This document shows, piece after piece, positions 485 to 38,531 of a stretch of DNA of 55,692 nucleotides. Source of the stretch: Planctomycetota bacterium (GTDB lineage Bacteria > Planctomycetota > Phycisphaerae > Phycisphaerales > Phycisphaeraceae); assembly GCA_024279865.1 (NCBI GenBank), contig JAJRRC010000076.1, positions 1-55,692 of the forward strand, in the 5' to 3' direction. A model generated the notes under the pieces. It had not been told where the DNA came from. It was given only the letters and a program-made list of their open reading frames with translations, and made no database searches. The translations under genes were made by a program, and so were the position numbers. Numbering within the stretch: the first letter of the stretch is position 1; every line of letters begins with the position of its first letter.

Positions 485-557
485 GCCCCCGTAGCTCAGT
501 TGGCAGAGCAGCGGTTTTGTAAACCGCAGGTCGCCGGTTCGAGTCCGGCCGGTGGCT
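485..557 (+). tRNA. tRNA-Thr(UGU), prophage attachment gene
   Basis: A full cloverleaf folds here. The acceptor 5' strand is 485-491, the D arm 494-509, the anticodon arm 511-527 with anticodon TGT at 518-520, the T arm 533-549, the acceptor 3' strand 550-556 and the discriminator T557. CCA is not encoded. The acceptor stem has one mismatch, C4 (488) opposite U69 (553). The 3' part from C512 onward lies in the 49-bp att repeat. The prophage therefore supplies the present 3' half, and the displaced host 3' half lies at 40059-40104. Confidence 0.93.
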
Positions 558-560
558 CTT
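512..560 (+). repeat. attL core, 49-bp direct repeat
   Basis: These 49 bases recur without mismatch at 40059-40107. The repeat starts at position 28 of the tRNA-Thr anticodon stem and ends three bases beyond the discriminator base. This is the usual form of a tyrosine-integrase site in which the phage carries the 3' end of the tRNA and restores the gene on integration. Identity drops sharply upstream (host 5' half here against phage sequence at attR). Downstream it only falls to roughly 80% for another 140 bp. Confidence 0.93.
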
Positions 561-759: not shown

Positions 760-1305
760 TTATTTATTGGTCGTGGCGCGTTCTTTTGCGTCGGTGAAGG
801 CATCTTCAATATTATTACGCCGAAACCATTCCTCTTGTGGCAGATCGTGCCAGTTTTCTTTTTGTTCACACCCCAGCGTGTACCGCCAGTCCGGGTATTT
901 ATCCCGCGTTTCTTTGTATCTCCAATTGATATCAACCAGTTTATCCACGAGCCATTCGTCGATCTCTGGCGGTAGATTACAGCCAGCAGCCTTGGCCCGT
1001 GCCTCTTCTTTTTCTTGTTTTTCTTCTGTAGCTTCTCTGGCATAACGTGTATATCGTTCTTCTTCGGTTTCTTTTCGCTTTTTCTTGGGCTTGTCTCCGT
1101 CCTGGTAGATGTTTTTGGGTGGGGTGACCTTGATGTTGAGAGCAATGACAAGTTTTTCAACGCTTGACAGACGAATATCTGCCTTGCCCGCTAAAAATTT
1201 CGACAAACTGGGACGGGGCAATCCAGCCTTTAGAGCCAGTTTAGTTATTGAAATACCATATTCTTTGGCAGTTTTTTTGATAGCATCTTCAATTGGGCTT
1301 CTCAT
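760..1305 (-). CDS. XRE-family transcriptional regulator, candidate lysogeny repressor
   Basis: This is a 181-residue protein. Residues 1-60 form a helix-turn-helix of the Cro/CI type, with the core SITKLALKAGLPRPSLSKFL. A very basic and acidic helical linker follows (about 70-110, KKKRKETEEERYTRYARE), then a C-terminal region rich in Trp that I do not recognise. It is the first gene inside attL and runs toward the att site. A TTGACC/TAAAAT promoter and operator-like repeats lie directly upstream (1338-1435), which fits an autoregulated repressor. The C-terminal part is not a LexA-type peptidase domain, so RecA-driven self-cleavage is not expected. Other phage regulatory roles are possible. 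Confidence 0.75.
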   Translation of the reverse strand: MRSPIEDAIKKTAKEYGISITKLALKAGLPRPSLSKFLAGKADIRLSSVEKLVIALNIKVTPPKNIYQDGDKPKKKRKETEEERYTRYAREATEEKQEKEEARAKAAGCNLPPEIDEWLVDKLVDINWRYKETRDKYPDWRYTLGCEQKENWHDLPQEEWFRRNNIEDAFTDAKERATTNK

Positions 1306-4522: not shown

Positions 4523-4951
4523 ATGGAAAAACTACACCCCCAAGATATCAACGACTTTTTCAAGCAGGTCAAAGACAACACGACCGGCGAGCTTTTGGAC
4601 AAGCTTGCCAACGTGATTGAGAACAAGAACCAATTGACCGCCCGCGTCAAGGTAGCGAACGAAGCAAAGGGAATGCTCGAACGCCTGCTTTTACAGCGAG
4701 CAGAAGAAGCAGGCGTCCAGTCCTTCAGCACCCCAACTTTAAGTGTGACTATCAAAGACAAGGTGGTCGCCAAGTACAGCCCACCCATGTTCGACGACAT
4801 TCTGGCTTGGGCCGTCAAAACAAACAATCAGCAGATCATTCAACGCCGATTCAGCAACGCCAAAGTGGAGAGCTTGGCGGTAGACGGCGTACCGTTGCCA
4901 GATGGCCTGACGCTTGAAGTACTTCCAACCGTTTCATCCCGTCGCAAGTAA
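4523..4951 (+). CDS. Gp157-like phage protein
   Basis: The 142-residue protein has a helical N-terminal half (about 5-70, ending NEAKGMLERLLLQRAEEAGV). It is followed by the characteristic segment in which a FSTPTLSVTIKD strand leads into the DNA-nuclease-like tail RRFSNAKVESLAVDGVPLPDG. This layout matches the siphovirus Gp157 family, which usually sits beside single-strand-binding or recombination genes in phage early operons and is linked to phage-resistance phenotypes in Streptococcus thermophilus phages. An AAAGGAG ribosome-binding site precedes the ATG. Here it leads the replication block. Confidence 0.7.
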   Translation: MEKLHPQDINDFFKQVKDNTTGELLDKLANVIENKNQLTARVKVANEAKGMLERLLLQRAEEAGVQSFSTPTLSVTIKDKVVAKYSPPMFDDILAWAVKTNNQQIIQRRFSNAKVESLAVDGVPLPDGLTLEVLPTVSSRRK

Positions 4952-4994
4952 ACAAACAAACTAACCGTGCAAAATCGCACAAGGAGACAACACT

Positions 4995-5693
4995 ATGTCA
5001 GAGACAAATGAAATCGCAACCACTCAACAAAACCTACCGGTCGCAGCCATGCCGCAGCCCCCGGCTCGGCCGGGCATGATCGAGAACACGACAGGGGAGG
5101 ATTTGGAGCTTCCGGTATTGCACCTGTTCCAGGACATCGGCAAGGAATCCGATCAGTACGGCGAACATGACAAAGGGGATTGGATTGATTCGTTGACGCT
5201 CGAAGCGATCAAAGACCCGATCATCATTCCCGTATCAGGCAAGAAAGAGTTCGTTGTTTGGTACGACCGGGACAGCACCCTCGGCAAGGGACTCGTCAAT
5301 AAATACGACACACGGGCCGAGGTACCGTCTGAGTACCAGGAAGATCAAGCCAATTACATCATCTCAGAAACCGTGACGTTTTACGTTCTGGTTTCAGGCG
5401 AACAATTGCCCGCAGTCATACGCTTCAAGTCAACCGCCTTGAAGGTGGCCCGTCAGCTCAACACGTTGGAGCGGATCCGCGCAGCCAAGCAGAAATGCCT
5501 TGGCCAATACAAGCTTGGCGTCACGCTTCGTTCGAACGACAAGGGCAAGTGGTATGTGCCGATGATCACGCCGAATGGTGACGCTAGCCAAGCGGACCAA
5601 GAAGCAGCTATTGCAGCCTACAACATGATCACCGGCGGCAACGTGACCGTCCATGACGTTGAAGAAATGGCCGACGACGACATTCCAATCTGA
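4995..5693 (+). CDS. Conserved phage early protein, possible ssDNA-binding role
   Basis: The 232-residue protein has a disordered N-terminus rich in Pro and Gln (about 1-30), a central mostly beta region (50-150) containing KKEFVVWYDRDS, a helical stretch RQLNTLERIRAAKQKCLGQY, and an acidic tail VEEMADDDIPI. An acidic C-terminal tip is typical of single-strand-binding proteins, and the place between Gp157 and the helicase genes fits one. The fold is not recognised. AAGGAGA precedes the ATG. It could equally be another recombination accessory. Confidence 0.6.
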   Translation: MSETNEIATTQQNLPVAAMPQPPARPGMIENTTGEDLELPVLHLFQDIGKESDQYGEHDKGDWIDSLTLEAIKDPIIIPVSGKKEFVVWYDRDSTLGKGLVNKYDTRAEVPSEYQEDQANYIISETVTFYVLVSGEQLPAVIRFKSTALKVARQLNTLERIRAAKQKCLGQYKLGVTLRSNDKGKWYVPMITPNGDASQADQEAAIAAYNMITGGNVTVHDVEEMADDDIPI

Positions 5694-6609: not shown

Positions 6610-8076
6610 ATGGATGGACAAAAACAAATCAAGCTGATGAAACATCAGCAAGAAGCAGTGACCCTGTGCGGACAGTACCCCCGGTTTGCCTTGCTATGGG
6701 ACTGCGGATTGGGCAAGACGATTGCCATGCTGGCCCATCACCAAAACAAGCCCATGCCCACGCTCGTGGTCTGCCCCAAGGCCATCATGTACGCAGCATG
6801 GGAAATGGATTGCAAGCTGATGGGCCAGCCGGTAACCGTCATGCACGGAACGCCAAGCCAACGGTCACGCATTGTGAGCAAGGTGATGTCCGAGTTCAAC
6901 CTGACCGACGACGACGTCACCTATGAGATGACCGATAACGTGGGCCCGGTGCCGTTGATCGTTACAAACTTTGAGACTTTCAGAAAAAAAGAAGTTCGGC
7001 AAACTTTAATTCAAGAGCTTAGCATCCGTCGCCTGATCGTAGACGAGTCAAGCAAAATCAAAAACCCAAAGAGCCTTGTAACAAAGGCAACGATTGCCTT
7101 CGCTGACAAAATGGACGAGGTCTATCTACTTAGCGGAACCCCCGCTCCGAACGGACCGCACGAATACTGGGCGCAGCTTCGGTGCTTGGACAAAACCCCC
7201 GGAGGCTTGGCCGATCATCCTGACTCGCACGTCCCGCCAAATTTTTACAGATGGGCAGGGCATTGGTTATTCCCCGAAGAACGATGGATGGGCAAGCGGA
7301 AGGTTGTTACAGGCTGGCGGATGAAGCCGATGCTCGAAGATGATTTTCAACACGCCCTCGCAACCAGGTCGCAGACTTTGAAAATGGAAGATGCCTTTGA
7401 CCTGCCACCCGTCTCGGCGCGTGCTATTCGCATTCAGCTTGGTGCGGGAGAAGCGAAGCATTACGCAAATCTTGTGGGCATGTTGCAAACAGAGCTTGAA
7501 AATGGAACTGTCAACACCACTGCGACTGCCTTGTTGACCAAGCTACGCCAAGTCACCGGCGGGCATCTTTATAACGACGGCGAGCAACTCAGTATTGGAA
7601 CCGCCAAGCTCGACGCACTGGCTGAGATCGTAGAGTCCATCGGCTCAAAGCCTGTGATCATTTGGGCGGAGTACACCGCCGAGATCAATTCGATTGAAAA
7701 GAGAATGACCGACATGGGTCGCAAGGTCTGGGTCATGAACGGCAAGACAAAAAACAACGGTCAGCGTTGCGCCCAGTTCCAGACCAACACAGAGATTGAC
7801 ACATTGGTTTGCCATCCACAGAGCGTGGGGCATGGCGTGACTTTGACCAAGGCAGCTTATTCAATCTTTTATAGCTACGGTTTTTCTTACGAATATCACC
7901 ACCAAGCACGAGCAAGGAACTATCGCAAGGGCCAAACCCAAAAGGTCATCCACACCTACATCATTGCCGAAGGGACCGTTGACCAGGACATTTTGCTTTC
8001 GTTGCGGGCGAAGAAAAAGGATTCCAACGGCGTCATCGATGCACTTAGAAGCATTACGCAAGGAGGCGGTCGTTGA
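6610..8076 (+). CDS. SNF2/DEAD-like superfamily 2 helicase
   Basis: The 488-residue protein has the SF2 motifs in order: motif I DCGLGKT (31-37), motif II LIVDESSKIKN, motif III LLSGTPAP, motif V around VCHPQSVGHGVTLTKA, and motif VI QARARNYRKGQ. The last is a variant of the SNF2 QAxxRxxRxGQ signature. It therefore probably translocates on double-stranded DNA using ATP. SNF2-type helicases are common in replication blocks of tailed phages, where they aid replication restart or recombination. Its stop overlaps the start of the PrimPol gene at 8073, so the two are coupled. Confidence 0.88.
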   Translation: MDGQKQIKLMKHQQEAVTLCGQYPRFALLWDCGLGKTIAMLAHHQNKPMPTLVVCPKAIMYAAWEMDCKLMGQPVTVMHGTPSQRSRIVSKVMSEFNLTDDDVTYEMTDNVGPVPLIVTNFETFRKKEVRQTLIQELSIRRLIVDESSKIKNPKSLVTKATIAFADKMDEVYLLSGTPAPNGPHEYWAQLRCLDKTPGGLADHPDSHVPPNFYRWAGHWLFPEERWMGKRKVVTGWRMKPMLEDDFQHALATRSQTLKMEDAFDLPPVSARAIRIQLGAGEAKHYANLVGMLQTELENGTVNTTATALLTKLRQVTGGHLYNDGEQLSIGTAKLDALAEIVESIGSKPVIIWAEYTAEINSIEKRMTDMGRKVWVMNGKTKNNGQRCAQFQTNTEIDTLVCHPQSVGHGVTLTKAAYSIFYSYGFSYEYHHQARARNYRKGQTQKVIHTYIIAEGTVDQDILLSLRAKKKDSNGVIDALRSITQGGGR

Positions 8077-10529
8077 AAGTACAGATCAGCAACATCCCAA
8101 CCGAGTTAGTTGAGTCCCCGAAATGGGTGGCATGGCGGTTTGAACAAAAAGAGACAGGCAAGAAACCGACCAAAGTCCCCATGTCGGTACCATCACGCGG
8201 ACGGCGAGGATCAACCACCAACCCAGACGAATGGGGTCCGCTTTACAAAGCCATGCAGCGGATGGAATCGGACAAGCTCGACGGCGTGGGCTATGTCTTC
8301 GACGGCGATGGCGTCGTCGGTGTGGACCTCGATAACTGTTTTGATGAGCATGGCGATCTTGAACAGTGGGCCAAAGAACTGGGCTCTGATTTTAATAGCT
8401 ACACCGAGATCACGCCCAGCGGTAAGGGCCTACATATCATCGTCCGAGCAGAGTTGCCGGGCTACAGGGGTCGCCGGGTTGGATCGGTTGAAGTCTATGC
8501 CACCGGACGATACTTCACCTTCACTGGCAACCATCTCGACGGCACACCGTCCACGGTCAACGATCCGGGCGATGCGTTCATGACTTGGTTCAAAGCGACG
8601 TTCGAGAAGCAAGAGAAAATTCAGCCAGTTTTGCCAAGCCCCGGATATGAAGGTGCTGACTTCGAGTTGATTGCCAAGGCACAACGGGCGGGCAACGGGA
8701 GCAAGTTCAACGCCTTGTGGCACGGTGACCTGTCAGGGCACGGTGACGATTGGAGCAGGGCAGACTCAGGACTTTGTTCTCATCTCGCTTTCTGGACTGG
8801 TTCCAACGCCAGCCGAATGGACGCATTATTTCGTGAGTCAGCTTTGATGCGGACAAAATGGGACGAAGCTCGTAATGATAGTACTTACGGAGCCGACACC
8901 ATTGCCGACGCAATCCGAAAATGCGACCGGCACTACGACCCCAACATGCGAGATGACGAAATTGCGTCTTGCCTTGACCGTTTAAATGGAAAGGGAGAGG
9001 CAGAACCCAAGCCCAAGCCCAAGGAAAAACCAAAAGAAAACGTCCGGACAGTCGTCACAAATGTCATACAAGATAAAGACAAAGACGATCAGGATCGCAC
9101 CCGTTACCTGCCGCCCAAAGACATAGCGAAAATGTTGATTGACGGCTGTCTTGGATGGCCCAAATCTGTAGGGGGAACGTTGTTCGCGTTGTCCCACAAG
9201 CACGATCCGTCTCGAATCGCAAAGCAAGAAGACATCATTCATCTGAAATCACAAGATGCTTTTTACGCATGGTGCCACACTCTTGTGGCCCTGAGTTTTA
9301 CGCAAAAGAAAACTGTTTCCGACGGCACGCGGTCCGTCAACCCGGTGAATCGTTCAGAGTTTTTCCAGACTGTCCAGTCAACGGCAAAGAAATACGACGG
9401 TATCGAGTTATTGCCGCATGAACCTATGCGTGACAGCTCGTATTACATTCCCACAAATCTGCCCGCTTCAGATGGCAGTGCCTTAAGCGAACTGCTCATG
9501 AATCTTAATGCTGATAGCGAGCCGGATCGTCGTCTGATGTTAGCTGCGCTCTTGACTCCGGGCTGGGGTGGGCCAGCCGGAGCAAGGCCAGCGTTTGTAT
9601 TTACCTCTGCACACGGACGAGGGACCGGCAAGACAACGACCGCAGAGTTGTTTGCGCGGATCTGGGGCGGCTGCATGACGGTACAGGAAGGTGAGCAATC
9701 GGAAATTGTCCGATCCCGCCTTCTCGACGAAAGTAGTATGGCCACAAGAATTGTGTTGATCGACAACCTAAAAGGCAGGCTCAGCAACGCCAACCTTGAA
9801 GCCATGATTTCAGCTCGCGTGATCGACGGCAAGCGTATGTATATCGGCCAGGCATCCCGACCCAATTATCTGACATGGTACATCACAGCGAATAGTCCCG
9901 ACCTCTCACGCGACCTTGCCGAACGGTCAATCCTCATTCGTGTTGGCGACCAGCAACACAGCATAGACTTCCGAGCATGGGCCGAAAAGTTTATCAAAGA
10001 GAAGCGAGCTCATGTCCTAGCTGACTTATTGGACATGCTCAAAAAAGGTGCCCAATCAAATATTGACAGCAAACATGCCGACCGATGGCGGACGTGGCAG
10101 ACCCAAGTCCTCGCCTGCATCCCCCATGCCAACGAGCTGGCTGTCTATGCAAAAGATTCCCGCGAAGAAATGGATAGCGATATCGCCATGGCCGGTGACA
10201 TCGAGCGGGTGGTCGAAGACCTGATTCGTTCGAAGGGACACATGCCGGGGATGGACTGCCTAAAAATTGACCCCAAAGCGATCCACCAAGCCATGGTTGA
10301 CGACGGCATGCGACAAAAGAATGATCGCCAGCGGTCGACCACGGCATGGATCAAGCATTACCTAGACGTGCCACCTTTGAAGGGGCGACTGTCCTATCGC
10401 CAAGCCCGCGTCGACGGGCGCAACACCCGCGTCTTTGTCTGGCACGGCGACAAAAACAAACTTGATATTTCAATTGACAACCTACCAACCCTTGGAGAAA
10501 TGGAGAACGACTCATGCCTAGATTATTAG
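8073..10529 (+). CDS. NrS-1-like primase-polymerase fused to SF3/D5-like helicase
   Basis: The N-terminal ~190 residues of this 818-residue protein match the PrimPol of phage NrS-1 in motif order: SPKWVAWRFEQKETGKKPTK, the metal-binding VDLD (D85, D87), SYTEITPSGKGLH with H121, and VEVYATGRYFTFTG. A linker with a KPKPKEK repeat (about 310-320) follows. The C-terminal half is an AAA+/SF3-like helicase with Walker A GRGTGKT (515-521), Walker B RIVLIDNLKG and an ITANSPDLSRDLAERSI sensor/Arg-finger region. In NrS-1 this architecture starts and extends DNA synthesis without a separate primase. No other DNA polymerase is encoded in the prophage, so this is the probable replicase. Confidence 0.85.
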   Translation: MKVQISNIPTELVESPKWVAWRFEQKETGKKPTKVPMSVPSRGRRGSTTNPDEWGPLYKAMQRMESDKLDGVGYVFDGDGVVGVDLDNCFDEHGDLEQWAKELGSDFNSYTEITPSGKGLHIIVRAELPGYRGRRVGSVEVYATGRYFTFTGNHLDGTPSTVNDPGDAFMTWFKATFEKQEKIQPVLPSPGYEGADFELIAKAQRAGNGSKFNALWHGDLSGHGDDWSRADSGLCSHLAFWTGSNASRMDALFRESALMRTKWDEARNDSTYGADTIADAIRKCDRHYDPNMRDDEIASCLDRLNGKGEAEPKPKPKEKPKENVRTVVTNVIQDKDKDDQDRTRYLPPKDIAKMLIDGCLGWPKSVGGTLFALSHKHDPSRIAKQEDIIHLKSQDAFYAWCHTLVALSFTQKKTVSDGTRSVNPVNRSEFFQTVQSTAKKYDGIELLPHEPMRDSSYYIPTNLPASDGSALSELLMNLNADSEPDRRLMLAALLTPGWGGPAGARPAFVFTSAHGRGTGKTTTAELFARIWGGCMTVQEGEQSEIVRSRLLDESSMATRIVLIDNLKGRLSNANLEAMISARVIDGKRMYIGQASRPNYLTWYITANSPDLSRDLAERSILIRVGDQQHSIDFRAWAEKFIKEKRAHVLADLLDMLKKGAQSNIDSKHADRWRTWQTQVLACIPHANELAVYAKDSREEMDSDIAMAGDIERVVEDLIRSKGHMPGMDCLKIDPKAIHQAMVDDGMRQKNDRQRSTTAWIKHYLDVPPLKGRLSYRQARVDGRNTRVFVWHGDKNKLDISIDNLPTLGEMENDSCLDY

Positions 10530-11035
10530 CGATTGACCCCGGAAGTACAGAAAGCGGATACGTGGTTTATGACGTGGAGCAGGACAGGTTCATTGACCAT
10601 GGCAAAATTGTAAACCAAGCCATGCTGGAACTCATAGCCACAAATCGCTTAAAAAGTGAAAGTGTTGCAATTGAAATGATTGCCTCTTATGGGATGCCGG
10701 TTGGCGCAGAGGTATTTAACACATGCGTCTGGATCGGGCATTTCTCTCAAGTATTTATCTCTAATTGGAAAAAATACGGTGGGGGGCTTAGATATATCTA
10801 CCGCAGAGAAGTCAAGCTCACACTATGCGGCTCACCACGAGCCAAAGACAGTAACGTCCGCCAAGCGATCATCGACCGCTATCCACAGACCGGTGGGGGT
10901 AAGACCCCGCAGGTTGGCACCAAGAAACAACCCGGCCCGCTTTACGGATTCAAGGCAGACATCTGGCAGGCGGCAGGTGTAGCTCTGACATGGAAGGAGT
11001 TGCAGAAAAATGAATCAACCAATTTACCACGTTGA
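10514..11035 (+). CDS. RuvC-like Holliday-junction resolvase
   Basis: The 173-residue protein has an RNase-H-like fold signature. LAIDPGSTESGYVVYD carries the first catalytic Asp (D8), VAIEMIASYG the catalytic Glu (E54), and a C-terminal KDSNVRQAI plus GFKADIWQAAGVAL supply further acidic residues (D112, D149). This matches phage RuvC-like resolvases that cut branched DNA before packaging. T7 uses the unrelated endonuclease gp3, so this is a replacement. The start at 10514 overlaps the PrimPol gene by 16 bases. Confidence 0.82.
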   Translation: MPRLLAIDPGSTESGYVVYDVEQDRFIDHGKIVNQAMLELIATNRLKSESVAIEMIASYGMPVGAEVFNTCVWIGHFSQVFISNWKKYGGGLRYIYRREVKLTLCGSPRAKDSNVRQAIIDRYPQTGGGKTPQVGTKKQPGPLYGFKADIWQAAGVALTWKELQKNESTNLPR

Positions 11036-11300
11036 GCATTGGTTGCCTGGGCAGTTGATTCGCGACGAGAACCAAAACATCACTGACCGAGAACCACCCA
11101 CGCCATGCCCCAACATCCTGACGATGGATGAAGCGATCCGTTACCTGCGATTCGACGAGGTTGGCAACCCGCGGAACGCAATCGACCGGGTCCGGAACAG
11201 CGGGCAATTACAAGGATACATGCAAGGCAAAGGAGTCAAGTTCCGTCGTGTGGACTTGGACAAATACGTTACCGAAAGAATGGAGTCGAACCCAGCATGA
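11010..11300 (+). CDS. Small DNA-binding protein, excisionase/MerR-like HTH
   Basis: The 96-residue protein has an unstructured N-terminal half. A C-terminal half resembles the winged HTH of excisionases: MDEAIRYLRFDE, then IDRVRNSGQLQGYMQGKGVK and FRRVDLDKYV. It lies between the resolvase and the RNA polymerase gene, overlapping both, and so is an early gene. Excisionase activity is possible, although the integrase has its own HTH neighbour at 38532. Alternatively it modulates the phage RNA polymerase or early transcription. Confidence 0.62.
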   Translation: MNQPIYHVEHWLPGQLIRDENQNITDREPPTPCPNILTMDEAIRYLRFDEVGNPRNAIDRVRNSGQLQGYMQGKGVKFRRVDLDKYVTERMESNPA

Positions 11301-13840
11301 GCAGACCAATCAAACACCTTGAACAGCACATCCTCGAGGGGAGCCTGCATGAAGAACAGATCAGGCGTGAGGAATCATACATCACCGGTGGCATCAAGCG
11401 GTACAACAGCCTTGTCAGAGACACGATCGAGCGAGGCGAGGGCAGCGAACTGTCAGCGTCTCAGCGCGTGGCAAGATACTGGTATCGCCCTTTGCTTCAA
11501 GCGATCCGTGAAGTCAAGCGAAATTTTGCGGCCAACCAATCTATTCTCGATGGTGCAGCAGGCATCAAACATTACGGCCCGGTCATGATGTTGGTGCCTG
11601 CTGAGAAGATGGCCGCGATCACGCTGCAAGCGACGCTCAGCAAGCTGATGATGCAGCCTGATGGCGTGAAGCATTCAACGCTTGCCCATCACATCGGGTC
11701 GGTTGTGCTTTCGACGATCAATATGAAGATCCTGCAAGCCAAAGGTAGAGAAGAAGACAAAGAGTTGCGGGAGTTGATCCAAGACCTCGATGGCAATGAC
11801 GCTTACGAGGCCAAGCGGAACCACGTATCTACTTACAAGCAGTTCGCCAGGACTGTCCGCAAGATAACCGACAAGAATTTGAATTGGTACGCAAAGAAAT
11901 ACTTTGCAGATGATGTTGTTTGGTCCCGCAAAGCCTGTGTCCATACCGGCACCGCCTTGCTGTGGCTCTTAATTGGCACGGCAACGGCTGGCGACTACGA
12001 AGACAATTTTGTCCAAGCTGTGCGTCAGCAATTGATATGGATGCCAGGCGGCCACCGTCCGCGATCCGTCCGGCATATCCAATTGACCGACGACGCTTGG
12101 TCAATGATCGAGCATGGGCACGACGTGCTGCAATACTGTCATCCCTTATACCGTGCCATGGTAGTGCCGCCTGTGACATGGGATGCGGGCATGGGCGGGT
12201 ATTACAAGACACGAGCAAAGATCGTATCCAAGTCCACACGCCAGCAGCAAGAGGCGTATCGCACGACGCACATGCCAGACTATACGTCTGCTCTGGACAT
12301 CCTTGGCCGCACGCCCCTTGCGGTCAACACGGCGGTTTTGGACGTACAGGAGCAACTCTACGAATCAGGTGGTGCGATTGGGACCATCCCGCATCGGGAC
12401 AATATCCCGATGCCACCGATTGTCGAGGCTCGAAACGAAGAGCATAAAAGCGAGCTAAAGAAGGAGCGGTCCAGAATCTATCGAGAGAATCGCAACCGAC
12501 GTGGCTTGCGTGTGACCTATGAACTGGTCCTGTCCGGTGCAAGAGATGCAGGCAAGTACGACTACATCTACCTGCCACACAATGCGTGCTTTCGCGGCCG
12601 TATGTATCCTCTCCCCGCCGTGTTCAACCACCACGGTGCTGACTCGGCGAGGTCGTTATTTCTTTTCGCCGACCGCAAACCATTGGATAGCGTCGGCCGT
12701 CAAAGCCTGATGATCTATATCGCGGGCCTGCTGGGCTACGACAAGACCAGTAACGCCGACCGGTTGCAAAAGATCGACGACATCACCGACCAACTCAATC
12801 TTTGGGCGAACGATCCGATCAGGCACACAGGCTGGCAGCGTGACCTTGAGGGAAAGCCCAACACCAAGAAAATGTTCCAAGTGCTTGCTGCGGCAAAGGC
12901 CTTGTTCGACGACGAGATTGGTAGTCGCCTGCCTGTCCAACTCGACGGTACCTGTAACGGCCTCCAGCATTACGCAGCCATGGGCCGTGATCCTATGTCG
13001 GCGGGCATGGTCAACTTGATTCCCGGCGACAAGCCTACCGATGTTTATTCAGCCGTGGGCAGCTACGCATGGGCGATGATCAAACAGGCTGCATCAGATG
13101 ACATCCTTGCTCGGCGCGTCGTCGAATGCTTGCCTGATGGCATCAGCCGATCCATGGCCAAGGACGTGGTGATGCCAGACGTGTACGGCATGACTATGGT
13201 CGGTGCTCGTCAGGCGGTCTATGCCTGTTTGGATGAGCATGACGTTGAGGGCAGTGAGAGGTATCGCATCAGCATGTACGTCGGCAAGATGATCAAGCAG
13301 GCGTTGGCCGAGGTCGTCCCCGCCGCAACCCAGATCATGGCTTGGCTGCAAAACGTGGCAAGATTGATCGCAAAAACCGGGGAGGTGGTGCAGTGGTGCA
13401 CGCCGTTGAACTTCCCAGTGATCCAGCACTATCGCAAGCAAAGCAAAAAGCAGGTGGCCACGGTGCTGGGCAATCTGACTGTGCAGATCGACGACGACAA
13501 AGTACCCGCAGCACCAGGCAAGCAAGCCAGCGGCATGGCTCCGAATTTTAATCACTGCATCGATGCCACACACTTGGCCATGATCATCAAAAAGTGTGCT
13601 GACGAGGGCCTATCTGTCCTGACCGTGCATGATTCCGTGTGGACACATGCCAACGACGTGCCCCGGCTGCATCAGATCATCCGGTCAACGTTCGTCGAGC
13701 TTCACACGCCGGACTTATTGCTGGACCTGCATACACAACTGCAACGCCAGCACCCTGACATCCAACTACCCAAGCCACCAGAGCAAGGTGACTTTAACCT
13801 GACCCAAGTCATAGACAGTGAATACTTTTTCAACGGATAA
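11297..13840 (+). CDS. T7-type single-subunit DNA-dependent RNA polymerase
   Basis: This 847-residue protein is close to T7 RNAP (883 residues). Motif A is DGTCNGLQHYAAMGRD with D550 (T7 D537). Motif B has K622 and Y630 with the same spacing as T7 K631 and Y639. Motif C is TVHDSVW with H778 and D779 (T7 H811, D812). The C-terminus ends in aromatic residues EYFFNG, comparable to the essential FAFA end of T7. The catalytic set is complete, so the enzyme should be active and transcribe the late block from its own promoters. In T7 the gene is first in the early region; here it follows replication genes, as in phiKMV-like phages. Confidence 0.96.
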   Translation: MSRPIKHLEQHILEGSLHEEQIRREESYITGGIKRYNSLVRDTIERGEGSELSASQRVARYWYRPLLQAIREVKRNFAANQSILDGAAGIKHYGPVMMLVPAEKMAAITLQATLSKLMMQPDGVKHSTLAHHIGSVVLSTINMKILQAKGREEDKELRELIQDLDGNDAYEAKRNHVSTYKQFARTVRKITDKNLNWYAKKYFADDVVWSRKACVHTGTALLWLLIGTATAGDYEDNFVQAVRQQLIWMPGGHRPRSVRHIQLTDDAWSMIEHGHDVLQYCHPLYRAMVVPPVTWDAGMGGYYKTRAKIVSKSTRQQQEAYRTTHMPDYTSALDILGRTPLAVNTAVLDVQEQLYESGGAIGTIPHRDNIPMPPIVEARNEEHKSELKKERSRIYRENRNRRGLRVTYELVLSGARDAGKYDYIYLPHNACFRGRMYPLPAVFNHHGADSARSLFLFADRKPLDSVGRQSLMIYIAGLLGYDKTSNADRLQKIDDITDQLNLWANDPIRHTGWQRDLEGKPNTKKMFQVLAAAKALFDDEIGSRLPVQLDGTCNGLQHYAAMGRDPMSAGMVNLIPGDKPTDVYSAVGSYAWAMIKQAASDDILARRVVECLPDGISRSMAKDVVMPDVYGMTMVGARQAVYACLDEHDVEGSERYRISMYVGKMIKQALAEVVPAATQIMAWLQNVARLIAKTGEVVQWCTPLNFPVIQHYRKQSKKQVATVLGNLTVQIDDDKVPAAPGKQASGMAPNFNHCIDATHLAMIIKKCADEGLSVLTVHDSVWTHANDVPRLHQIIRSTFVELHTPDLLLDLHTQLQRQHPDIQLPKPPEQGDFNLTQVIDSEYFFNG

Positions 13841-13868
13841 CCAAACGATCTTAGAAAGGATTAAGACA

Positions 13869-16246: not shown

Positions 16247-16284
16247 ACGCTTTCATTCAATACCCTTGAAGCGTATGACATGTG

Positions 16285-16839
16285 ATGCCAAACCAAAACC
16301 AAAAGTTCTCCCTACGACCCGTGTATGTTTTCTTTACCGAAACGCATACGCGGGTTTTTTCTTTGCACACTTCCTACCGGCTCCTGACCCGCCGACCTCG
16401 GACCGCGGTCAATCTGTTCCTTGAATGGATGATCGTCAAGCTATCCCGGTCGTCTATCGCCCATTGCTCAATTGGGCATGATGGGGTGGTCCTCGATCCA
16501 GTGCATAGCGGTGACCGGTTCTGGCCTTTTCAGGCTTACGTTCGCAAGTATCCGCGAATCAAAGGATGTTTTATCATCCCGGCCCCGCACCCCATCGACC
16601 TGACACGCTACGAAGATCGACCGGTCAAACCAGTGTGGCGAACATTCGCCAAGTGGGCGACGCGAGGGCTGATAAGCACAACTGATTGTGTCTGCACCAC
16701 CAAAGACGTGCTGGCTCAACTCTATATTCATTGCCCACGATCCGTAACAACCCCAATCAAACTCTACAGGTGGCTTCATGCAAAAAAATACTGCTTCGAA
16801 CCATTTGACGATCCCGATGATGAGCGAGCAACTGATTGA
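16285..16839 (+). CDS. Putative NlpC/P60-like (permuted papain fold) protein
   Basis: The frame gives up to 184 residues. The segment IAHCSIGHDGVVLDPVHSG with a later TDCVCTTKDVLAQL resembles circularly permuted NlpC/P60/LRAT-type proteins, in which the catalytic His precedes the Cys. That would suggest a hydrolase acting on peptide or amide bonds, and makes it the best candidate for a wall-active enzyme. The start is uncertain: a strong terminator-like hairpin lies at 16318-16365 inside the N-terminal part, and ATG at 16429 is the alternative. No Shine-Dalgarno supports either. Codon third positions upstream of 16429 still look coding. Confidence 0.55.
   Translation: MPNQNQKFSLRPVYVFFTETHTRVFSLHTSYRLLTRRPRTAVNLFLEWMIVKLSRSSIAHCSIGHDGVVLDPVHSGDRFWPFQAYVRKYPRIKGCFIIPAPHPIDLTRYEDRPVKPVWRTFAKWATRGLISTTDCVCTTKDVLAQLYIHCPRSVTTPIKLYRWLHAKKYCFEPFDDPDDERATD
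16318..16365 (+). terminator. Strong intrinsic terminator-like hairpin after the early block
   Basis: CCCGTGTATG and CATACGCGGG pair as a 10-bp stem (one G-U pair) around a 17-nt loop and are followed directly by six T. It lies 73 bases after the HigA-like gene. By position it corresponds to the T7 early terminator, which stops host polymerase after the early genes. It overlaps the 5' part of an open frame (16285-16839), so either that gene starts later or the signal is embedded in coding sequence. Confidence 0.7.
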
Positions 16840-17205: not shown

Positions 17206-18810
17206 ATGGAAATAAAACAAGCGGCCTTGCGAAACGAGTTCGATCAAGACTTTGCCGATGCAAGCGAAGTCCTCGACCGAGCAAGGTTGTGTGCAAAGCT
17301 AAGCAAGCCGTGGCTATTGCCGCCTCTTGGCCACACAAAGAATGATCGACTCGCTGACAACTACCAATCGGTGGGCTCGGATGGCCTGACCATCTTTGTC
17401 GGCAAGATGCTTTCGGTTATCTTCCCCCCGTTTCCATGGTTCCGCTATGAATTGGCACCTGAATTACTGCATAACCCTGAAATACCAGACGAATTTAAGC
17501 AACAAGCTGACCGGGTACTGCTGCTCAATCAAATGACCTTGATGTCTTTGATTGAAAATACAAAGCAGAGCAAGAAGCAGCGTCGCAAAGCCACATTCAG
17601 GACGACGGCATTTCAGGCATTGTCGCAAACAGTCGGCACCGGCGACGTACTGATGTCCATGGGCGACGATTACAGGTGCAAAGTCTATCGGCGTGACCAA
17701 TGGACATGCTTGCGGGATAGCACCGGCGACGTGCTGAAGTACATGGTCAAAGAGCGAATCGACCCGCTTTCACTCAGCGAAGAGAAGCGTGCCAAAGCTG
17801 AATTGTCTCAATCCGTGTGGGAAACAAAGACTCCCAAAGACCGCATGGAAGACTTGTATACGCGGGTTCAGTGGCAGCAAGACACACAAACATGGGTGAT
17901 TGAGCAGGAGTTGAACGGGCGAATTATTTCTGAATCCGAAGAAGAAGTATCGCCGTACTGGTCAACCCCGTTCGAGCTTGTCCCCGGTGAAAACTACGGA
18001 CGTGGATTGATCGAGCAGAACCTTGGCGACCTGTCAGGACTTGACCAGCAAGAAGAAAAACTGCTGGACATTATTGCGGCGGCTAGCAAAATGCTGTTCG
18101 CTAAAGATGAATCAAGCAATGTTCGTGATGAAGACCTGCAAAAGCCAAGTGGCTCGACGATCCGGGCTGATGTCAAAGGCGGCAAAGTCCAAGACGTAGG
18201 CATTTTAAGCTTTGCTATGCCGACCGAATTTAATATTTTAACATCGGCCATTGTTCGCAAAACTCAGCAACTGGGTAAAGCCATGCTGATGGAGCAAGCC
18301 TCGCAACCGCAAAAAGACCGCGTCACTGCATTGCAGATCCAGCGGATTGCCCAAGAGTTGGATGCAGCTACCGGAGGGGCCGCAGCTACCGTGATGGACA
18401 ACATGCAGATGCCGCTTTTGGCGCGTGCAGAATTCCAAGCAGAACGCGACAATCTTTTGCAACCCATACCAGACGGCGCTGCAAACATCGTTGCCTCGAC
18501 CGGCATGGCCGCCCTCGAACAAGGGGCCGTGATGCGTGAAGCCTTGGAGCTTGCCCAGATCGCCTCACAACTCGGACCACAGGCCATGGCCAAGATCGAC
18601 GGCGGTGTATTGATCGACGTGATCGCAAGGCACAAAGCGTTCTACGAACCGGGCCTTATCAAATCAAACCAGCAGCTTGCAGAAGAACAGCAGGCTGCCC
18701 AACAGCAGGCACTTGCCCAGCAGGTTCAAAGCAAAACCGTGGACGTTTTGGGTAATGCAGCACAAACAGAACTGGCAGCCAACACACAACAAGGAGATGC
18801 ACCAGCATGA
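17206..18810 (+). CDS. Portal (head-to-tail connector) protein, T7 gp8-like
   Basis: The 534-residue protein matches the T7 gp8 family in length and in sequence texture. The N-terminus has RARLCAKLSKPWLLPPLGHT, then ADNYQSVGSDGLTIFVGKML and SVIFPPFPWFRYEL. A mid-region GENYGRGLIEQNLGDLSGLD follows, and the C-terminus is Gln-rich. It forms the dodecameric ring at the head vertex through which DNA is packaged. Next to it are the scaffold (overlap ATGA at 18807) and capsid genes in T7 order. Confident by synteny and motifs. Confidence 0.92.
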   Translation: MEIKQAALRNEFDQDFADASEVLDRARLCAKLSKPWLLPPLGHTKNDRLADNYQSVGSDGLTIFVGKMLSVIFPPFPWFRYELAPELLHNPEIPDEFKQQADRVLLLNQMTLMSLIENTKQSKKQRRKATFRTTAFQALSQTVGTGDVLMSMGDDYRCKVYRRDQWTCLRDSTGDVLKYMVKERIDPLSLSEEKRAKAELSQSVWETKTPKDRMEDLYTRVQWQQDTQTWVIEQELNGRIISESEEEVSPYWSTPFELVPGENYGRGLIEQNLGDLSGLDQQEEKLLDIIAAASKMLFAKDESSNVRDEDLQKPSGSTIRADVKGGKVQDVGILSFAMPTEFNILTSAIVRKTQQLGKAMLMEQASQPQKDRVTALQIQRIAQELDAATGGAAATVMDNMQMPLLARAEFQAERDNLLQPIPDGAANIVASTGMAALEQGAVMREALELAQIASQLGPQAMAKIDGGVLIDVIARHKAFYEPGLIKSNQQLAEEQQAAQQQALAQQVQSKTVDVLGNAAQTELAANTQQGDAPA

Positions 18811-19817
18811 CCCTCAACGCACCAACACCAACGCCGGACGCCAACACCGATCCAGCAACGCCAACACCGCAGATCCCCGCAGGCACCGGGGGTACCGCAC
18901 CGGCGGGCGATCCCAAGGCAACACCCCCTACACCACAAGACGCAGCGGCGGCTGGAGGTGACCTGATTCTCGGCAAGTTCACCGACGAAGCTGCCCTCGA
19001 TGTGGCAATTGCAGAGCTTGCCAAGCACCCAAAGGTCAACATGGGATGGATCGCAGAAGCAAAAACAGGTGCCCTCGATGATAAAACTTACTTGTATGGC
19101 CTGATGCAAACCCAGCTATCCAAGGCTGGCGGCTCAGTTGCCGATGCAGATCCAAACGCCGAAGCAACGCCCGAAGGTTCTGAACCTAGCGAGCAGAACG
19201 TGGACCTACAAATCTCTGACGAGCCTCAGTCGGCAAGCATGGCCAACCTGATGGAAGGCGTGGGGCTGTCGCAAGAGGACATGGGCAAACAGTTCCTCGA
19301 ACACGGCAAGCTCACGGACGAGCAATACAAGGCGTTTGACGGTGCAAAGATCACGCTTGCGAACGGGCAGGAAATGTCGTTGGGAAAAGACCTGATCGAC
19401 GAAGTGTTAACTTCCCAAAGAAACGAAGCTATGGCCATGCAACAAGCGGCCGGAGCATTGAAGGAGCAGGCCGCAAAGCAAGCGGTGAAGATGGTTGGCT
19501 CGCAAGAACAACTCACCAATCTATTAGCTTGGGCAAGAGTCTTGCCTGATGCGACCAGAGACGACATCAACACGCGTTTGAATGATCCCTCGCGGTTTGA
19601 AGGTGCCTTGATGGAGCTGCAACAACGCAAGGCTCAAGCCACCGGAGCCACCGGATCAGGCCAGACAATCAATAACGGTATGCCTGCATCAGAAGCAGGG
19701 ACATTTGCAAGCACCGCCGAAGGTTTAACTGCATTGACCGCGGCACAAGGAAACCCCGTTCAAGCCCAAGCGATCCGCGAAAAAATAGCCCGAACACTTC
19801 GTGCTGGAAAAGTGTAA
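18807..19817 (+). CDS. Scaffolding protein, T7 gp9-like
   Basis: The 336-residue acidic protein has a disordered N-terminus of Thr-Pro-Ala repeats (about 1-50) and then DLILGKFTDEAALDVAIAEL. A helical C-terminal half ends in ARTLRAGKV. The start overlaps the portal stop. Gene position between portal and capsid, acidic character and low complexity fit the internal scaffold that directs head assembly and leaves before DNA enters. The basic C-terminal tip is typical of scaffolds that dock on capsid protein. Confidence 0.82.
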   Translation: MTLNAPTPTPDANTDPATPTPQIPAGTGGTAPAGDPKATPPTPQDAAAAGGDLILGKFTDEAALDVAIAELAKHPKVNMGWIAEAKTGALDDKTYLYGLMQTQLSKAGGSVADADPNAEATPEGSEPSEQNVDLQISDEPQSASMANLMEGVGLSQEDMGKQFLEHGKLTDEQYKAFDGAKITLANGQEMSLGKDLIDEVLTSQRNEAMAMQQAAGALKEQAAKQAVKMVGSQEQLTNLLAWARVLPDATRDDINTRLNDPSRFEGALMELQQRKAQATGATGSGQTINNGMPASEAGTFASTAEGLTALTAAQGNPVQAQAIREKIARTLRAGKV

Positions 19818-19860
19818 ACATCAAAACAATTGACACAAGTCAATAGAAAGAACCAACCCA

Positions 19861-20220
19861 ATGAAAATTCAAGGCTATCACATTACTGTTTCATCTCGGC
19901 ATGAACACAAAAGGGAAAAGATCAACCACTCTGTGCACATCACTGACATCGGTGACGGCAAGCTCAAAGGTCAATTCTTTGGCTCTGACTGGAAAAAAGT
20001 GATCGGCAACATCAAAGAATGGGTCACTGCCAAAAAGCTCAAACTTACTGGATCGCTGGATTGCCCGACGCTTAACAAGTACAAGCCGTCGATGGACCCA
20101 AACATTCGGCCCATCATCAAGAACGCTCACCAAGAGCCATCGGGTGCCGCCATTGCAGCTCCACCAGTTGTGATGGAGTCACCTGCCGTACAACCCACCG
20201 CTCCCACACCAACCCAATAA
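19861..20220 (+). CDS. Small basic protein between scaffold and capsid
   Basis: The 119-residue protein begins MKIQGYHITVSSRHEHKREK, is rich in Lys and His, contains a beta-like stretch DGKLKGQFFGSDWKKVIGNI, and has a Pro/Ala/Thr-rich C-terminal tail from about residue 90. No family recognised. An inverted repeat TTGACACAAGTCAA (19834-19847) lies between the scaffold stop and this start and could be regulatory. T7 has no gene here. The product may be a minor head component or a decoration factor. Confidence 0.55.
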   Translation: MKIQGYHITVSSRHEHKREKINHSVHITDIGDGKLKGQFFGSDWKKVIGNIKEWVTAKKLKLTGSLDCPTLNKYKPSMDPNIRPIIKNAHQEPSGAAIAAPPVVMESPAVQPTAPTPTQ

Positions 20221-20226
20221 AACACC

Positions 20227-20300
20227 AACGGGGTAGAACAGTCTGGTAGTTCGTCGGGCCCATAACCCGAAGGCCGTTGGTTCAAATCCAACCCCCGTTA
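20227..20300 (+). tRNA. Phage initiator-type tRNA-fMet(CAU) with C33 and A1:U72
   Basis: A complete cloverleaf folds. The acceptor strands are 20227-20233 and 20293-20299, discriminator A20300, D stem GAAC/GTTC, T loop TTCAAAT. The anticodon stem has three G-C pairs (GGG/CCC next to the loop), the hallmark of initiator tRNAs, and 11:24 is A-U. Two features are unusual for bacteria. Position 33 is C instead of U, giving loop CCCATAA. Positions 1:72 form an A-U pair instead of the usual C-A mismatch. CCA is not encoded. It lies 143 bases before the capsid start, inside the late operon. Confidence 0.88.
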
Positions 20301-20442
20301 CTTTTTCTTACGTTTTCGCTATTTAGCACCCAAGCCCATTTGGCACAGCGGACAACCTCCTATGAGGCCCGGCGTGACCTTGGACAACTTGCGCTTAAGC
20401 ACTTGTTCAGTTCACCCCAACCTCACACAGGAGGCCTCTATC
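20301..20442 (+). promoter_or_regulatory. Capsid leader with consensus Shine-Dalgarno
   Basis: These 142 bases follow the tRNA. A perfect AGGAGG (20429-20434) lies eight bases before the ATG at 20443, the strongest ribosome-binding site in the prophage, fitting the most abundant virion protein. An in-frame ATG at 20362 exists but has no such signal. No phage promoter can be assigned. Confidence 0.65.
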
Positions 20443-21462
20443 ATGGCTTTTGTTCTCGACCGCGTTTTAAAAAACAATGCAGCCGCTACCCCCACTCCGT
20501 GGAATATGGCGATGTTGCAATTCAACCAGCAAATCATCAGCAAATTTGAAGGACCGTTCTCGCTCTGGGATATGGTTCAACAAACTCCCTTTACGGGATC
20601 AGTCGCCGAGAAGACCCCGGCGTTCGCCGATATGACCGCAGGCCGACACACGCCGGGTGCTGTCATTGACGGCCAAAATGTCAAAAAAGAAGAACGTGTG
20701 ATCTTCATCGAAGATGAAGAAACCATTGCGTTTACCCACAAATCAAAGGTCGATGACATCATCGAGCACATTCAATCAACGCCTCAGTACGCAGCAAAAT
20801 CTTCACAGGCTTTGCGCCGATTGTGCAATAAGCATTCGTTTATGCAGTTGATCAATACCGCTCGTGTTGCTGCTCGCGTGAGCGGTGAATTTCCCGGCGG
20901 CAATTCCGTGACTGTGACCTCTGGTGGCGCGACGCAACTGTCAGACGTCTTTCCCAAGTCACTGTCTGGATCTCAGGCGTTGCAGAATGCCCTCGGTGAC
21001 CTGCAACAGCAGTACACCGACAAGGAAATCCCGCCTGAAATGGACAAGTTCTGTTTCTTGCCGTCATACCTCATGGGCGTGCTGGCTCAAGACCCAACAT
21101 TGCTAAGCCGTGACTATGACGGTGCTGAATTCAACAGCCTCATCAAGCGCAAGGTGATGCGGGTTGAAGATTTCTGGATCATCGAAACGCCCGCAGGCCA
21201 AATGCCTTTGACGGACATGTCTGCTGCTAACGGCACGGACATCCCTTATGTTCAAGGCGTGCTCTCCTACCGCGGCGATTTCAGCAAAGTTGCGGCTGCC
21301 ACCTGCACATCGACCACGCTGAAGGCTTTGGTGTCCGAGTCCATTACGCCTGCGATGGATTGGATTCCTCAGCAACGTGTCTACATGATCGGTGCCGCCA
21401 TGATGAAGGGCATCGGTTCAAACCAATACGAAACCGCTGGCACCATTGAATGGTCTGCCTAA
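20443..21462 (+). CDS. Major capsid protein, T7 gp10-like position
   Basis: The 339-residue protein begins MAFVLDRVLKNNAAATPTPW. It has a long region of alternating helices and strands with QALRRLCNKHSFMQLINTAR in the middle and WIPQQRVYMIGAAMMKGIG near the end. Length and position between scaffold and tail genes agree with an HK97-fold capsid protein of the T7 group (T7 gp10A has 345 residues). A consensus Shine-Dalgarno precedes this start. An intrinsic terminator follows (21488-21520) as after T7 gene 10. No slippery site for a 10B-type frameshift is seen near the end. Confidence 0.85.
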   Translation: MAFVLDRVLKNNAAATPTPWNMAMLQFNQQIISKFEGPFSLWDMVQQTPFTGSVAEKTPAFADMTAGRHTPGAVIDGQNVKKEERVIFIEDEETIAFTHKSKVDDIIEHIQSTPQYAAKSSQALRRLCNKHSFMQLINTARVAARVSGEFPGGNSVTVTSGGATQLSDVFPKSLSGSQALQNALGDLQQQYTDKEIPPEMDKFCFLPSYLMGVLAQDPTLLSRDYDGAEFNSLIKRKVMRVEDFWIIETPAGQMPLTDMSAANGTDIPYVQGVLSYRGDFSKVAAATCTSTTLKALVSESITPAMDWIPQQRVYMIGAAMMKGIGSNQYETAGTIEWSA

Positions 21463-24249: not shown

Positions 24250-24819
24250 ATGGCAATCATTTACCCCGTCGAAGCAGTCAACCAGGTGCTCGAAGCTATC
24301 GGCCAACCACCTGTTTCTGATGCGGAAAAAGATACGCATCCGGATTCAATTGAGGCTGATGGGTTCCTGCTTCGGGCCGACAACAAGATTCAACGGCGTG
24401 GATGGCACTTCAATATGTTCTTCGATGTGGCACTGGCATTTGACGGCAATGGAAACATTGCAACAGGTGATATTCTGCGAATCATTGCAGTCAAGTATCC
24501 GTGGCGCGTGGCAATCCGCAATAGCAAACTCTACGACCTTGAAAACGAAACCATTGTCTTTACCGCAGAGCCAACTGTATCGGCCGTTCGCAAACTGACG
24601 TGGTTTGATCTGCCTTGGTCGCTCCAGCAGTACATCATCACCGATGCGGCCGTCACATATCAGCGGTATAAGCGAACTGACCAAGTGGATGATGCCGTTC
24701 TACGGGACAACCTTGCCCAGGCTAAATTGCAGGCCGTCCGAGATGACGAAGACCTGCGACAAACCAACCTCCTACAAACTGACGAACACCTTCGATTGAA
24801 AGGCTGGCCCTACCGATGA
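24250..24819 (+). CDS. Tail tubular protein A, T7 gp11-like
   Basis: The 189-residue protein starts MAIIYPVEAVNQVLEAIGQP, has the family segment DNKIQRRGWHFNMFFDVAL and a helical C-terminus with DEHLRLKGWPYR. Length and these signatures match T7 gp11 (196 residues), which forms the adaptor ring between portal and nozzle. Its stop overlaps the start of the RCC1-repeat gene, so the latter is cotranslated with tail genes. Confidence 0.9.
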   Translation: MAIIYPVEAVNQVLEAIGQPPVSDAEKDTHPDSIEADGFLLRADNKIQRRGWHFNMFFDVALAFDGNGNIATGDILRIIAVKYPWRVAIRNSKLYDLENETIVFTAEPTVSAVRKLTWFDLPWSLQQYIITDAAVTYQRYKRTDQVDDAVLRDNLAQAKLQAVRDDEDLRQTNLLQTDEHLRLKGWPYR

Positions 24820-26312: not shown

Positions 26313-26314
26313 TC

Positions 26315-38445: not shown

Positions 38446-38495
38446 CCCATCCATCACCCCATCACCCAGCACCTTTGGCTTTTTTCATTTGCCTA

Positions 38496-38523
38496 TTGAC
38501 TTATAATACTTATTGTGTAGCAT
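38496..38523 (+). promoter_or_regulatory. Promoter of the HTH-integrase operon
   Basis: TTGACT (38496-38501), a 16-base spacer and TAGCAT (38518-38523) lie just before the ATG at 38532. This implies a very short or absent leader if the -10 is TAGCAT. TATAAT at 38502-38507 is an alternative -10 with a weaker upstream box. Both look like host sigma-70 promoters. Confidence 0.5.
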
Positions 38524-38531
38524 TGTTTGTT

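What the first reader, a model, noticed from the sequence alone, without database searches (positions are those of the whole stretch)
8073..13840. T7-type phage transcription and virion with a NrS-1-like PrimPol-helicase as the only visible replicase
The prophage has a catalytically complete single-subunit RNA polymerase and a T7-order head-tail module. I find no T7 gp5-like DNA polymerase, no gp4 primase-helicase and no gp3 endonuclease. In their place are an SNF2 helicase, an 818-residue PrimPol-SF3 helicase whose N-terminus follows the NrS-1 polymerase motif by motif (D85, D87, H121), and a RuvC-like resolvase. De novo-initiating PrimPol replication coupled to T7-type late transcription would be a distinct lineage of temperate autographivirus-like phage.
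Basis: partly seen in the sequence, partly recalled or inferred. Interest (0 to 1): 0.85.

Follow-up and report, generated by a model that had tools for sequence, protein, structure and literature searches.

The report
T7-like prophage with PrimPol replication module
A dormant virus in a planctomycete bacterium makes RNA and builds its shell like phage T7 but has swapped T7's DNA-copying enzymes for a primase-polymerase cassette from unrelated phages; it belongs to a group of T7-like viruses in which we found no DNA polymerase of their own.

Summary
Window 512-40107 is a complete-looking 39.6-kb prophage (49-bp att repeat in tRNA-Thr, integrase, repressor) with a single-subunit RNA polymerase, a T7-order virion module, no T7 gp3, gp4, gp5 or gp6 homologue, and no family A, B or C DNA polymerase found. 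[quoted passage not shown] its C-terminal half is only weakly SF3-like and lacks NrS-1's Head and Tail domains.
A distinct T7-like lineage exists, but PrimPol does not define it. The RNAP tree puts the window in a 24-row clade (SH-aLRT 100) with no T7-type DNA polymerase found. Relatives whose replication module could be seen have an SF2 helicase (12 records, 7 with a Toprim primase), DnaB (2) or a lambda O-like initiator (1). Those need an outside polymerase, presumably host Pol III. Among the clade records examined only the window has PrimPol, a widespread cassette of other phages. So PrimPol as sole replicase is possible but not shown; primase-helicase feeding the host polymerase fits better (about 60:35).

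The parts
512..560 (+). attL: 49-bp repeat, 3' half of tRNA-Thr(TGT)
   Evidence: exact repeat shared with 40059-40107; tRNA 485-558
760..1305 (-). cI-like HTH protein, probable lysogeny repressor
   Evidence: HTH_3 E 1.6e-7; role inferred
4523..5693 (+). two genes related to Pam3 phage gp33 and gp34 (early region)
   Evidence: PF23984 E 6e-5, below cut-off; PF23977 E 5e-25
6610..8076 (+). SNF2-family helicase of the phrog_62 type
   Evidence: phrog_62 E 6e-91; PF00176 E 5e-17
8073..10529 (+). PrimPol: residues 1-307 NrS-1-like primase-polymerase plus HBD; residues about 480-730 divergent, probably SF3/AAA+ helicase
   Evidence: PDB NrS-1 E 1e-41; HBD 7e-28; residues; fold; DUF5906 E 2.6e-5, below cut-off; phrog_10537 at 476-722; Walker A-like GTGKT at 517
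10514..11035 (+). Holliday junction resolvase (RuvC-like)
   Evidence: phrog_1770 E 5e-15; no Pfam hit
11010..11300 (+). small HTH protein
   Evidence: HTH_17 E 2e-4, below cut-off
11297..13840 (+). single-subunit T7-type RNA polymerase
   Evidence: phrog_414 E 4e-167; PF00940 E 1e-99; invariant residues
13818..15956 (+). unknown gene, DUF1937/deoxyribosyltransferase-like gene, Dam-type adenine methyltransferase
16282..16839 (+). g16: conserved small protein between RNAP and portal in the clade
   Evidence: found in many clade members by blastp and HMM
17206..18810 (+). portal (head-tail adaptor)
   Evidence: phrog_449 E 9e-78; 44-48% identity to three clade portals, about 28-31% in the 25 best rows of the phages collection
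18807..21462 (+). scaffold protein and major capsid protein
   Evidence: phrog_1052, phrog_267
24250..28186 (+). tail tube A, RCC1-repeat protein, tail tube B (nozzle)
   Evidence: phrog_446, RCC1 families, phrog_457; Phage_nozzle E 1e-92
28199..35831 (+). internal virion proteins
   Evidence: phrog_418, phrog_342; the middle ORF 28702-31335 has no family hit and is assigned by position
35837..37818 (+). small ORF in the TerS position and terminase large subunit
   Evidence: phrog_38 E 3e-66 for TerL; TerS by position only
38475..39919 (+). HTH regulator and tyrosine integrase
   Evidence: phrog_1468; phrog_1 E 2e-30
40059..40107 (+). attR: second copy of the 49-bp repeat

Best explanation
This is an intact-looking temperate T7-like podophage integrated in a tRNA-Thr gene of a bacterium that probably belongs to the order Phycisphaerales. 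It belongs to a clade of T7-like phages in which no T7-type DNA polymerase was found and whose replication modules are swapped. In this member the module is SNF2 helicase, PrimPol-helicase and RuvC-like resolvase, joined by overlapping genes to the RNAP gene. Most likely working: on induction the host RNA polymerase transcribes the early operon, so replication enzymes and phage RNAP appear together. The PrimPol domain makes DNA primers de novo, the C-terminal helicase opens the template, the host Pol III holoenzyme does the bulk synthesis, and the resolvase processes junctions before packaging. The phage RNAP then transcribes the virion genes downstream. Shown: gene content, order, homology, residues, absence of known DNA polymerase families, clade membership. 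Inferred: operon transcription, use of host Pol III, helicase activity, late promoter use, ability to excise.
For: Absence of DNA polymerase. PrimPol identity. Clade: RNAP tree of 77 rows puts the window with 23 others, SH-aLRT 100, no row with a T7-type PolA hit in its held stretch; TerL tree of 17 rows puts the window with 12 clade records, 100/99. PF00476 over its cut-off in 0 of 17 clade records (two of them near-copies of others) and in 5 of 5 controls. Relatives' modules: RNAP with a ResIII-type SF2 helicase in 12 distinct records, 7 of them with a Toprim primase-like ORF; DnaB in G446 and G450; lambda O-like initiator with exonuclease VIII in G604 of the same order. None of these modules holds a recognised polymerase. 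Separately, an RNAP-bearing element outside the clade (L024) has a DnaC-like loader. PrimPol beside annotated DNA polymerases in Halfdan and RcTitan. Overlapping genes 6610-15046.
Against: NrS-1 polymerase makes long DNA without a primer and is held to be its phage's replicase (passages of PMC8718748), and the window keeps its primase and HBD residues, so self-sufficient synthesis is not excluded. No direct evidence of host Pol III recruitment. The DNA polymerases of Halfdan and RcTitan rest on annotation (Halfdan: weak PF00136 match below cut-off; no Pfam hit at 0.01; RcTitan: none of the four polymerase families matched), so profile searches can miss divergent phage polymerases, and could have missed one in the clade too. 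Many clade records are fragments, and completeness was not given. G451 has a 45-position PF00476 match below cut-off. The C-terminal helicase assignment is weak.
Confidence: 0.6

Rival explanations
1. PrimPol is the phage's own and sole replicase: it starts and extends both strands de novo as NrS-1 polymerase does in vitro, with the SF3-like domain as replicative helicase, independent of host Pol III.
For: The catalytic, loop and HBD residues of NrS-1 that I compared are kept, except S108, which is T114; HBD and fold match; no other polymerase found. S108T keeps some activity, and NrSPol is described as capable of synthesising the phage genome (passages of PMC8718748).
Against: Nearest T7-like relatives show primase, helicase or initiator modules and no recognised polymerase. 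The same family occurs beside annotated DNA polymerases. [quoted passage not shown] Head and Tail absent. Three residues around NrS-1's extra metal site (T69, F74, E142) differ.
Confidence: 0.35
2. Ordinary recombinational mosaic: an SNF2-PrimPol-RuvC cassette of other phages replaced the primase-helicase module in one T7-like prophage, with no new mechanism and no PrimPol lineage behind it. (This overlaps with both readings above.)
For: SNF2 gene near PrimPol in 52 of 80 PrimPol-bearing viral loci, none with T7 RNAP or T7-type portal in the held flanks. PrimPol in none of the 80 RNAP-scan loci, 15 clade contigs and 13 portal-scan loci. PrimPol tree leaves the window on its own deep branch among other phages' PrimPols.
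Against: RNAP beside PrimPol is also seen in G180/L022, with a different RNAP branch, different PrimPol branch and different TerL, so the pairing seems to have arisen at least twice. The PolA-less clade is supported by two gene trees.
Confidence: 0.5
3. Defective or chimeric: the element cannot replicate alone, or the contig joins two phages.
For: Seen here only in one draft genome, G000, of 122 contigs.
Against: Exact 49-bp att repeat at both ends, replication and RNAP genes overlap each other by 4-26 bases with the starts as listed, long open frames for the expected virion genes (the frames were chosen as open, so this is weak).
Confidence: 0.04

Closest known systems
Temperate T7-like phages with integrase (LUZ100, Caulobacter S2B)
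   Same: Single-subunit RNAP, T7 virion genes, integrase
   Different: Both are annotated with a T7-type DNA polymerase and primase-helicase after RNAP, and have the integrase just before RNAP; the window has neither enzyme, and its RNAP lies between the replication cassette and the virion genes
Nitratiruptor phage NrS-1 polymerase
   Same: N-terminal PrimPol and HBD, catalytic residues; no other DNA polymerase annotated in the stretch seen, no PF00476 match
   Different: Window lacks Head and Tail domains and has a divergent helicase; NrS-1 has a tape measure gene and no annotated RNAP in the stretch seen
PrimPol cassette phages (phi105, Halfdan, RcTitan and IMG/VR loci)
   Same: PrimPol-helicase as replication gene, often with SNF2 nearby
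   Different: No T7 RNAP or T7-type portal in the 80 viral loci's held flanks, and none annotated in the phi105, Halfdan and RcTitan stretches seen; Halfdan and RcTitan add an annotated DNA polymerase
Uncultured RNAP-portal clade in IMG/VR and Phycisphaerales MAGs (e.g. G433, G442, G443, G348, G604)
   Same: RNAP and TerL clade, g16-portal-scaffold-capsid-tube order, integrase in several, no DNA polymerase found
   Different: Replication by SF2 helicase with or without Toprim primase, DnaB, or O-like initiator instead of PrimPol, where seen

Membership tests
Autographivirus-like (T7-like) phages | single-subunit RNA polymerase | tested here: met
Autographivirus-like (T7-like) phages | T7-order virion module | tested here: met
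Autographivirus-like (T7-like) phages | T7-type gp5 DNA polymerase and gp4 primase-helicase | tested here: not met
Autographivirus-like (T7-like) phages | RNAP-specific late promoters and terminal repeats of virion DNA | tested here: inconclusive
   no 20-mer family in the late gaps, no T7 promoter within 3 mismatches; terminal repeats not testable in a prophage
NrS-1-type PrimPol | PrimPol catalytic residues and SPS loop | tested here: met
   D85, D87, H121, P115, S116, G117, G119, Y147 kept; S108 is T114
NrS-1-type PrimPol | HBD | tested here: met
   PF22763 E 7e-28; R260, K262, Y272
NrS-1-type PrimPol | SF3 helicase body | tested here: inconclusive
   DUF5906 25.3 bits against cut-off 27.6; Walker A-like stretch; C-terminus not modelled; my profile comparison gave nothing
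NrS-1-type PrimPol | Head and Tail domains | tested here: not met
   PF22761 and PF22762 absent; the NrS-1 protein itself hits both
NrS-1-type PrimPol | primer-free DNA synthesis | not testable with these tools
   needs enzyme assay
PolA-less RNAP-portal clade | RNAP and TerL group together, no T7-type PolA | tested here: met

The most novel reading that the evidence does not exclude
A T7-like temperate phage copies its whole genome with a primer-independent PrimPol-helicase as its only polymerase, co-expressed from one overlapping operon with a T7-type RNA polymerase, inside a clade of T7-like phages that gave up their own DNA polymerase.
Probability: 0.3. Interest if true: 0.8.

Novelty: new variant of a known kind. 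Interest (0 to 1): 0.56.

Why it matters
T7 is the textbook self-sufficient phage: own RNA polymerase, own DNA polymerase. Here is a T7-like clade in which RNAP and virion stayed together while no T7-type DNA polymerase is found and the replication module varies between SF2 helicase with or without Toprim primase, DnaB, lambda O-like initiator and PrimPol. That makes two questions testable: whether T7-type transcription needs T7-type replication, and whether a PrimPol can replace a replicative polymerase or only a primase.

Tried and rejected
Pattern searches with single proteins found no relatives: PrimPol in genome contigs and viral contigs, RNAP in viral contigs. Two-sequence and four-sequence alignments did. 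An eight-sequence RNAP alignment was too diverse. PF03175 is uninformative: nothing rang in any control. The search of G049, G604 and G663 with PrimPol had no positive control in the call. Foldseek on the full-length model is informative only for about residues 1-307. My hhalign of the C-terminus gave nothing usable, possibly for a format reason. No phage promoter family was found. Considered and rejected: a non-polymerising primase of another family (NrS-1 structures are the best sequence and fold hits); chimera (overlapping genes, att repeats).

Paper searches for the combination or the clade; no listed title or abstract start described a T7-like phage with PrimPol. Most listed papers were seen only in the listing; PMC10134795, PMC10386132, PMC5862659, PMC8718748 and PMC7102993 were seen as passages. 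The 2017 PNAS paper on NrS-1 polymerase is not held and is known here only through PMC8718748.
Full report
What is there. The window is one whole contig (G000:C97) of a draft genome. A 49-bp exact repeat at 512-560 and 40059-40107 reproduces the 3' half of tRNA-Thr, so the prophage is about 39.6 kb. A cI-like repressor sits at one end and a tyrosine integrase at the other. The host is probably of the order Phycisphaerales: a genome of the same order, G348, carries a relative of the RNAP and portal on a 9326-base contig that agrees in length and matches with JAJTGZ010000074.1, a Phycisphaeraceae MAG.

The replication-transcription block. SNF2 6610-8076, PrimPol 8073-10529, RuvC-like 10514-11035, HTH 11010-11300, RNAP 11297-13840, unknown 13818-14537 and deoxyribosyltransferase-like 14534-15046 overlap each other by 4 to 26 bases with the starts as listed. 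The PrimPol matches NrS-1 structures (E about 1e-41), the NrS-1 HBD and, on an AlphaFold model mostly confident over residues 1-307, the NrS-1 crystal structures (Foldseek E 7.5e-22). NrS-1 residues D78, D80, H115, P109, S110, G111, G113, Y146, R249, K251 and Y261 are kept; S108 is T114; of the residues around NrS-1's extra metal site D72 is kept and T69, F74 and E142 are not. In NrS-1, S108T keeps some activity and D72 is not a key residue (passages of PMC8718748). The C-terminal half has a Walker A-like stretch and a sub-threshold DUF5906 match, without NrS-1's Head and Tail domains; NrS-1 itself hits both.

No DNA polymerase found. T7 gp2.5, 3, 3.5, 4, 5, 6 and the matching LUZ100 and Alfirin proteins find nothing in the window by tblastn at E 0.01, while T7 RNAP and Alfirin portal and TerL do. 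T7-type PolA and gp4 profiles find nothing in the window. PF00476 and PF07733 hit only genes on other contigs of the genome. PF00136 hits nothing in the genome. PF03175 rang nowhere, so says nothing. PHROGs scans of 29 prophage proteins gave no DNA polymerase family except, for the PrimPol itself, one named 'DNA polymerase/primase'.

The clade. An RNAP scan of IMG/VR gave 134 relatives, of which the best 80 were kept. Local profiles split them: one set with RNAP followed by a window-like portal and without PolA or gp4, the other mostly with gp4 and PolA. RNAPs under 600 aa were left out; of 86 others 9 near-copies were dropped; in the tree of 77 the window falls in 24 rows with SH-aLRT 100, none with a T7-type PolA hit in its held stretch (quick method, no bootstrap; some near-copies remain among the 24). 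The row next outside, L073, has PolA (87). A TerL tree of 17 rows agrees: 13 clade rows, window included, 100/99. PF00476 is over its cut-off in 0 of 17 clade records (two of them near-copies of others) and in 5 of 5 PolA-type controls; one clade record, G451, has a sub-threshold 45-position match. Completeness was not given and records may be fragments; seven of those fetched are 41.8-44.2 kb. PF07733 and PF00136 matched in 0 of 16 clade records. Integrases occur in G436, G438, G441, G443, G446 and G450.

Replication modules in the clade. Twelve distinct RNAP-bearing records have a ResIII-type SF2 helicase (G433, G435 read as L054/L242, G436, G438, G441-G444, G448, L249, L250, L254); seven of these also have a Toprim primase-like ORF (G433, G442, G443, G444, G448, L249, L254). 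L243 has the helicase, Toprim ORF, g16 and portal but no RNAP between them in the held stretch. G446 and G450 have DnaB. G604, a prophage in the same order with RNAP, portal, capsid, tubes, internal proteins and TerL of this type and no PolA profile hit in the 60 kb looked at, has a lambda O-like initiator and exonuclease VIII; it is placed by portal and TerL similarity, not in the tree, and PF00476 was not run on that genome. G049, of the window's own family, has RNAP-g16-portal-scaffold-capsid on a 9.3-kb contig. PrimPol was found in none of the 80 RNAP-scan loci, 15 clade contigs (two of them cut at 20 kb) or 13 portal-scan loci, nor in G049, G604 and G663 (no positive control). Against a simple host rule: G663, same order, has a T7-RNAP element with PolA and gp4.

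Where the PrimPol comes from. Of 80 PrimPol-bearing IMG/VR loci (best 80 of 99), 52 have an SNF2 gene and none has T7 RNAP, T7-type portal or T7-type PolA in the held flanks of up to 10 kb. The window's PrimPol is a deep, unresolved branch. RNAP beside PrimPol is also seen in G180/L022, but there the RNAP lies outside the clade, the PrimPol in another branch, and the TerL is phrog_675. So the pairing seems to have arisen at least twice. In Halfdan and RcTitan the PrimPol lies beside annotated DNA polymerases. The Halfdan one has only a weak sub-threshold PF00136 match and no Pfam hit at 0.01, and RcTitan matched none of the four polymerase families. That rests on annotation, and it also warns that profile searches can miss divergent phage polymerases, here as well.

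Mechanism. Inferred: early operon from host promoters gives helicases, PrimPol, resolvase and phage RNAP together; PrimPol primes and unwinds; host Pol III elongates; RNAP drives the virion genes that follow. Host dependence is argued from the clade, whose other modules hold no recognised polymerase. The NrS-1-like self-replicase reading remains open, since the residues are there and NrS-1 polymerase is described as able to make its genome de novo (passages of PMC8718748). I put 0.6 on host polymerase and 0.35 on PrimPol alone. The mosaic rival overlaps with both, so the figures do not sum to one. No phage promoter family was found by a simple repeat search or the T7 consensus.

Verdict. Observation confirmed; interpretation partly supported. 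It is a new variant of a known kind. The wider clade of T7-like phages without a detected DNA polymerase is the more interesting result; my paper searches listed nothing that by title or abstract start describes it, but that library lacks most subscription journals and preprints.

Noticed in passing
window 20227-20301: A tRNA-Met (CAT) gene lies inside the prophage between the scaffold region and the capsid gene; it could be an initiator, elongator or Ile2 tRNA.
   Followed up: no
window 24816-26312: An RCC1-repeat protein sits between tail tubes A and B; it may be a tail fibre or adhesin. No T7 gp17-type fibre was named by the PHROGs scans.
   Followed up: no
window 619-645, 38326-38345, 39914-39945: Repeats of a CTCACCGATG-type unit lie near both att sites and the integrase region, possibly integrase arm or excisionase sites.
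   Followed up: no
L022 (G180:C145) 842-5865: Second RNAP next to PrimPol, in an element of another family of the same bacterial class, with a methyltransferase-ParB protein and a different TerL.
   Followed up: partly
L243 1-5762: A clade-type contig where helicase, Toprim ORF, g16 and portal follow each other without an RNAP gene between them: a possible loss or move of the RNAP.
   Followed up: no
L269 (G663:C112) 875-10817: A T7-RNAP element in a genome of the same bacterial order that does have T7-type DNA polymerase and gp4, so both types occur in the order.
   Followed up: no
L015 6429-8135 (G011): A Prim-Pol domain joined to a RecD-like helicase lies directly beside an NrS-1-like PrimPol gene in a genome of the window's family.
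   Followed up: no
window 4523-5693: Two early genes related to gp33 and gp34 of phage Pam3; role unknown.
   Followed up: no
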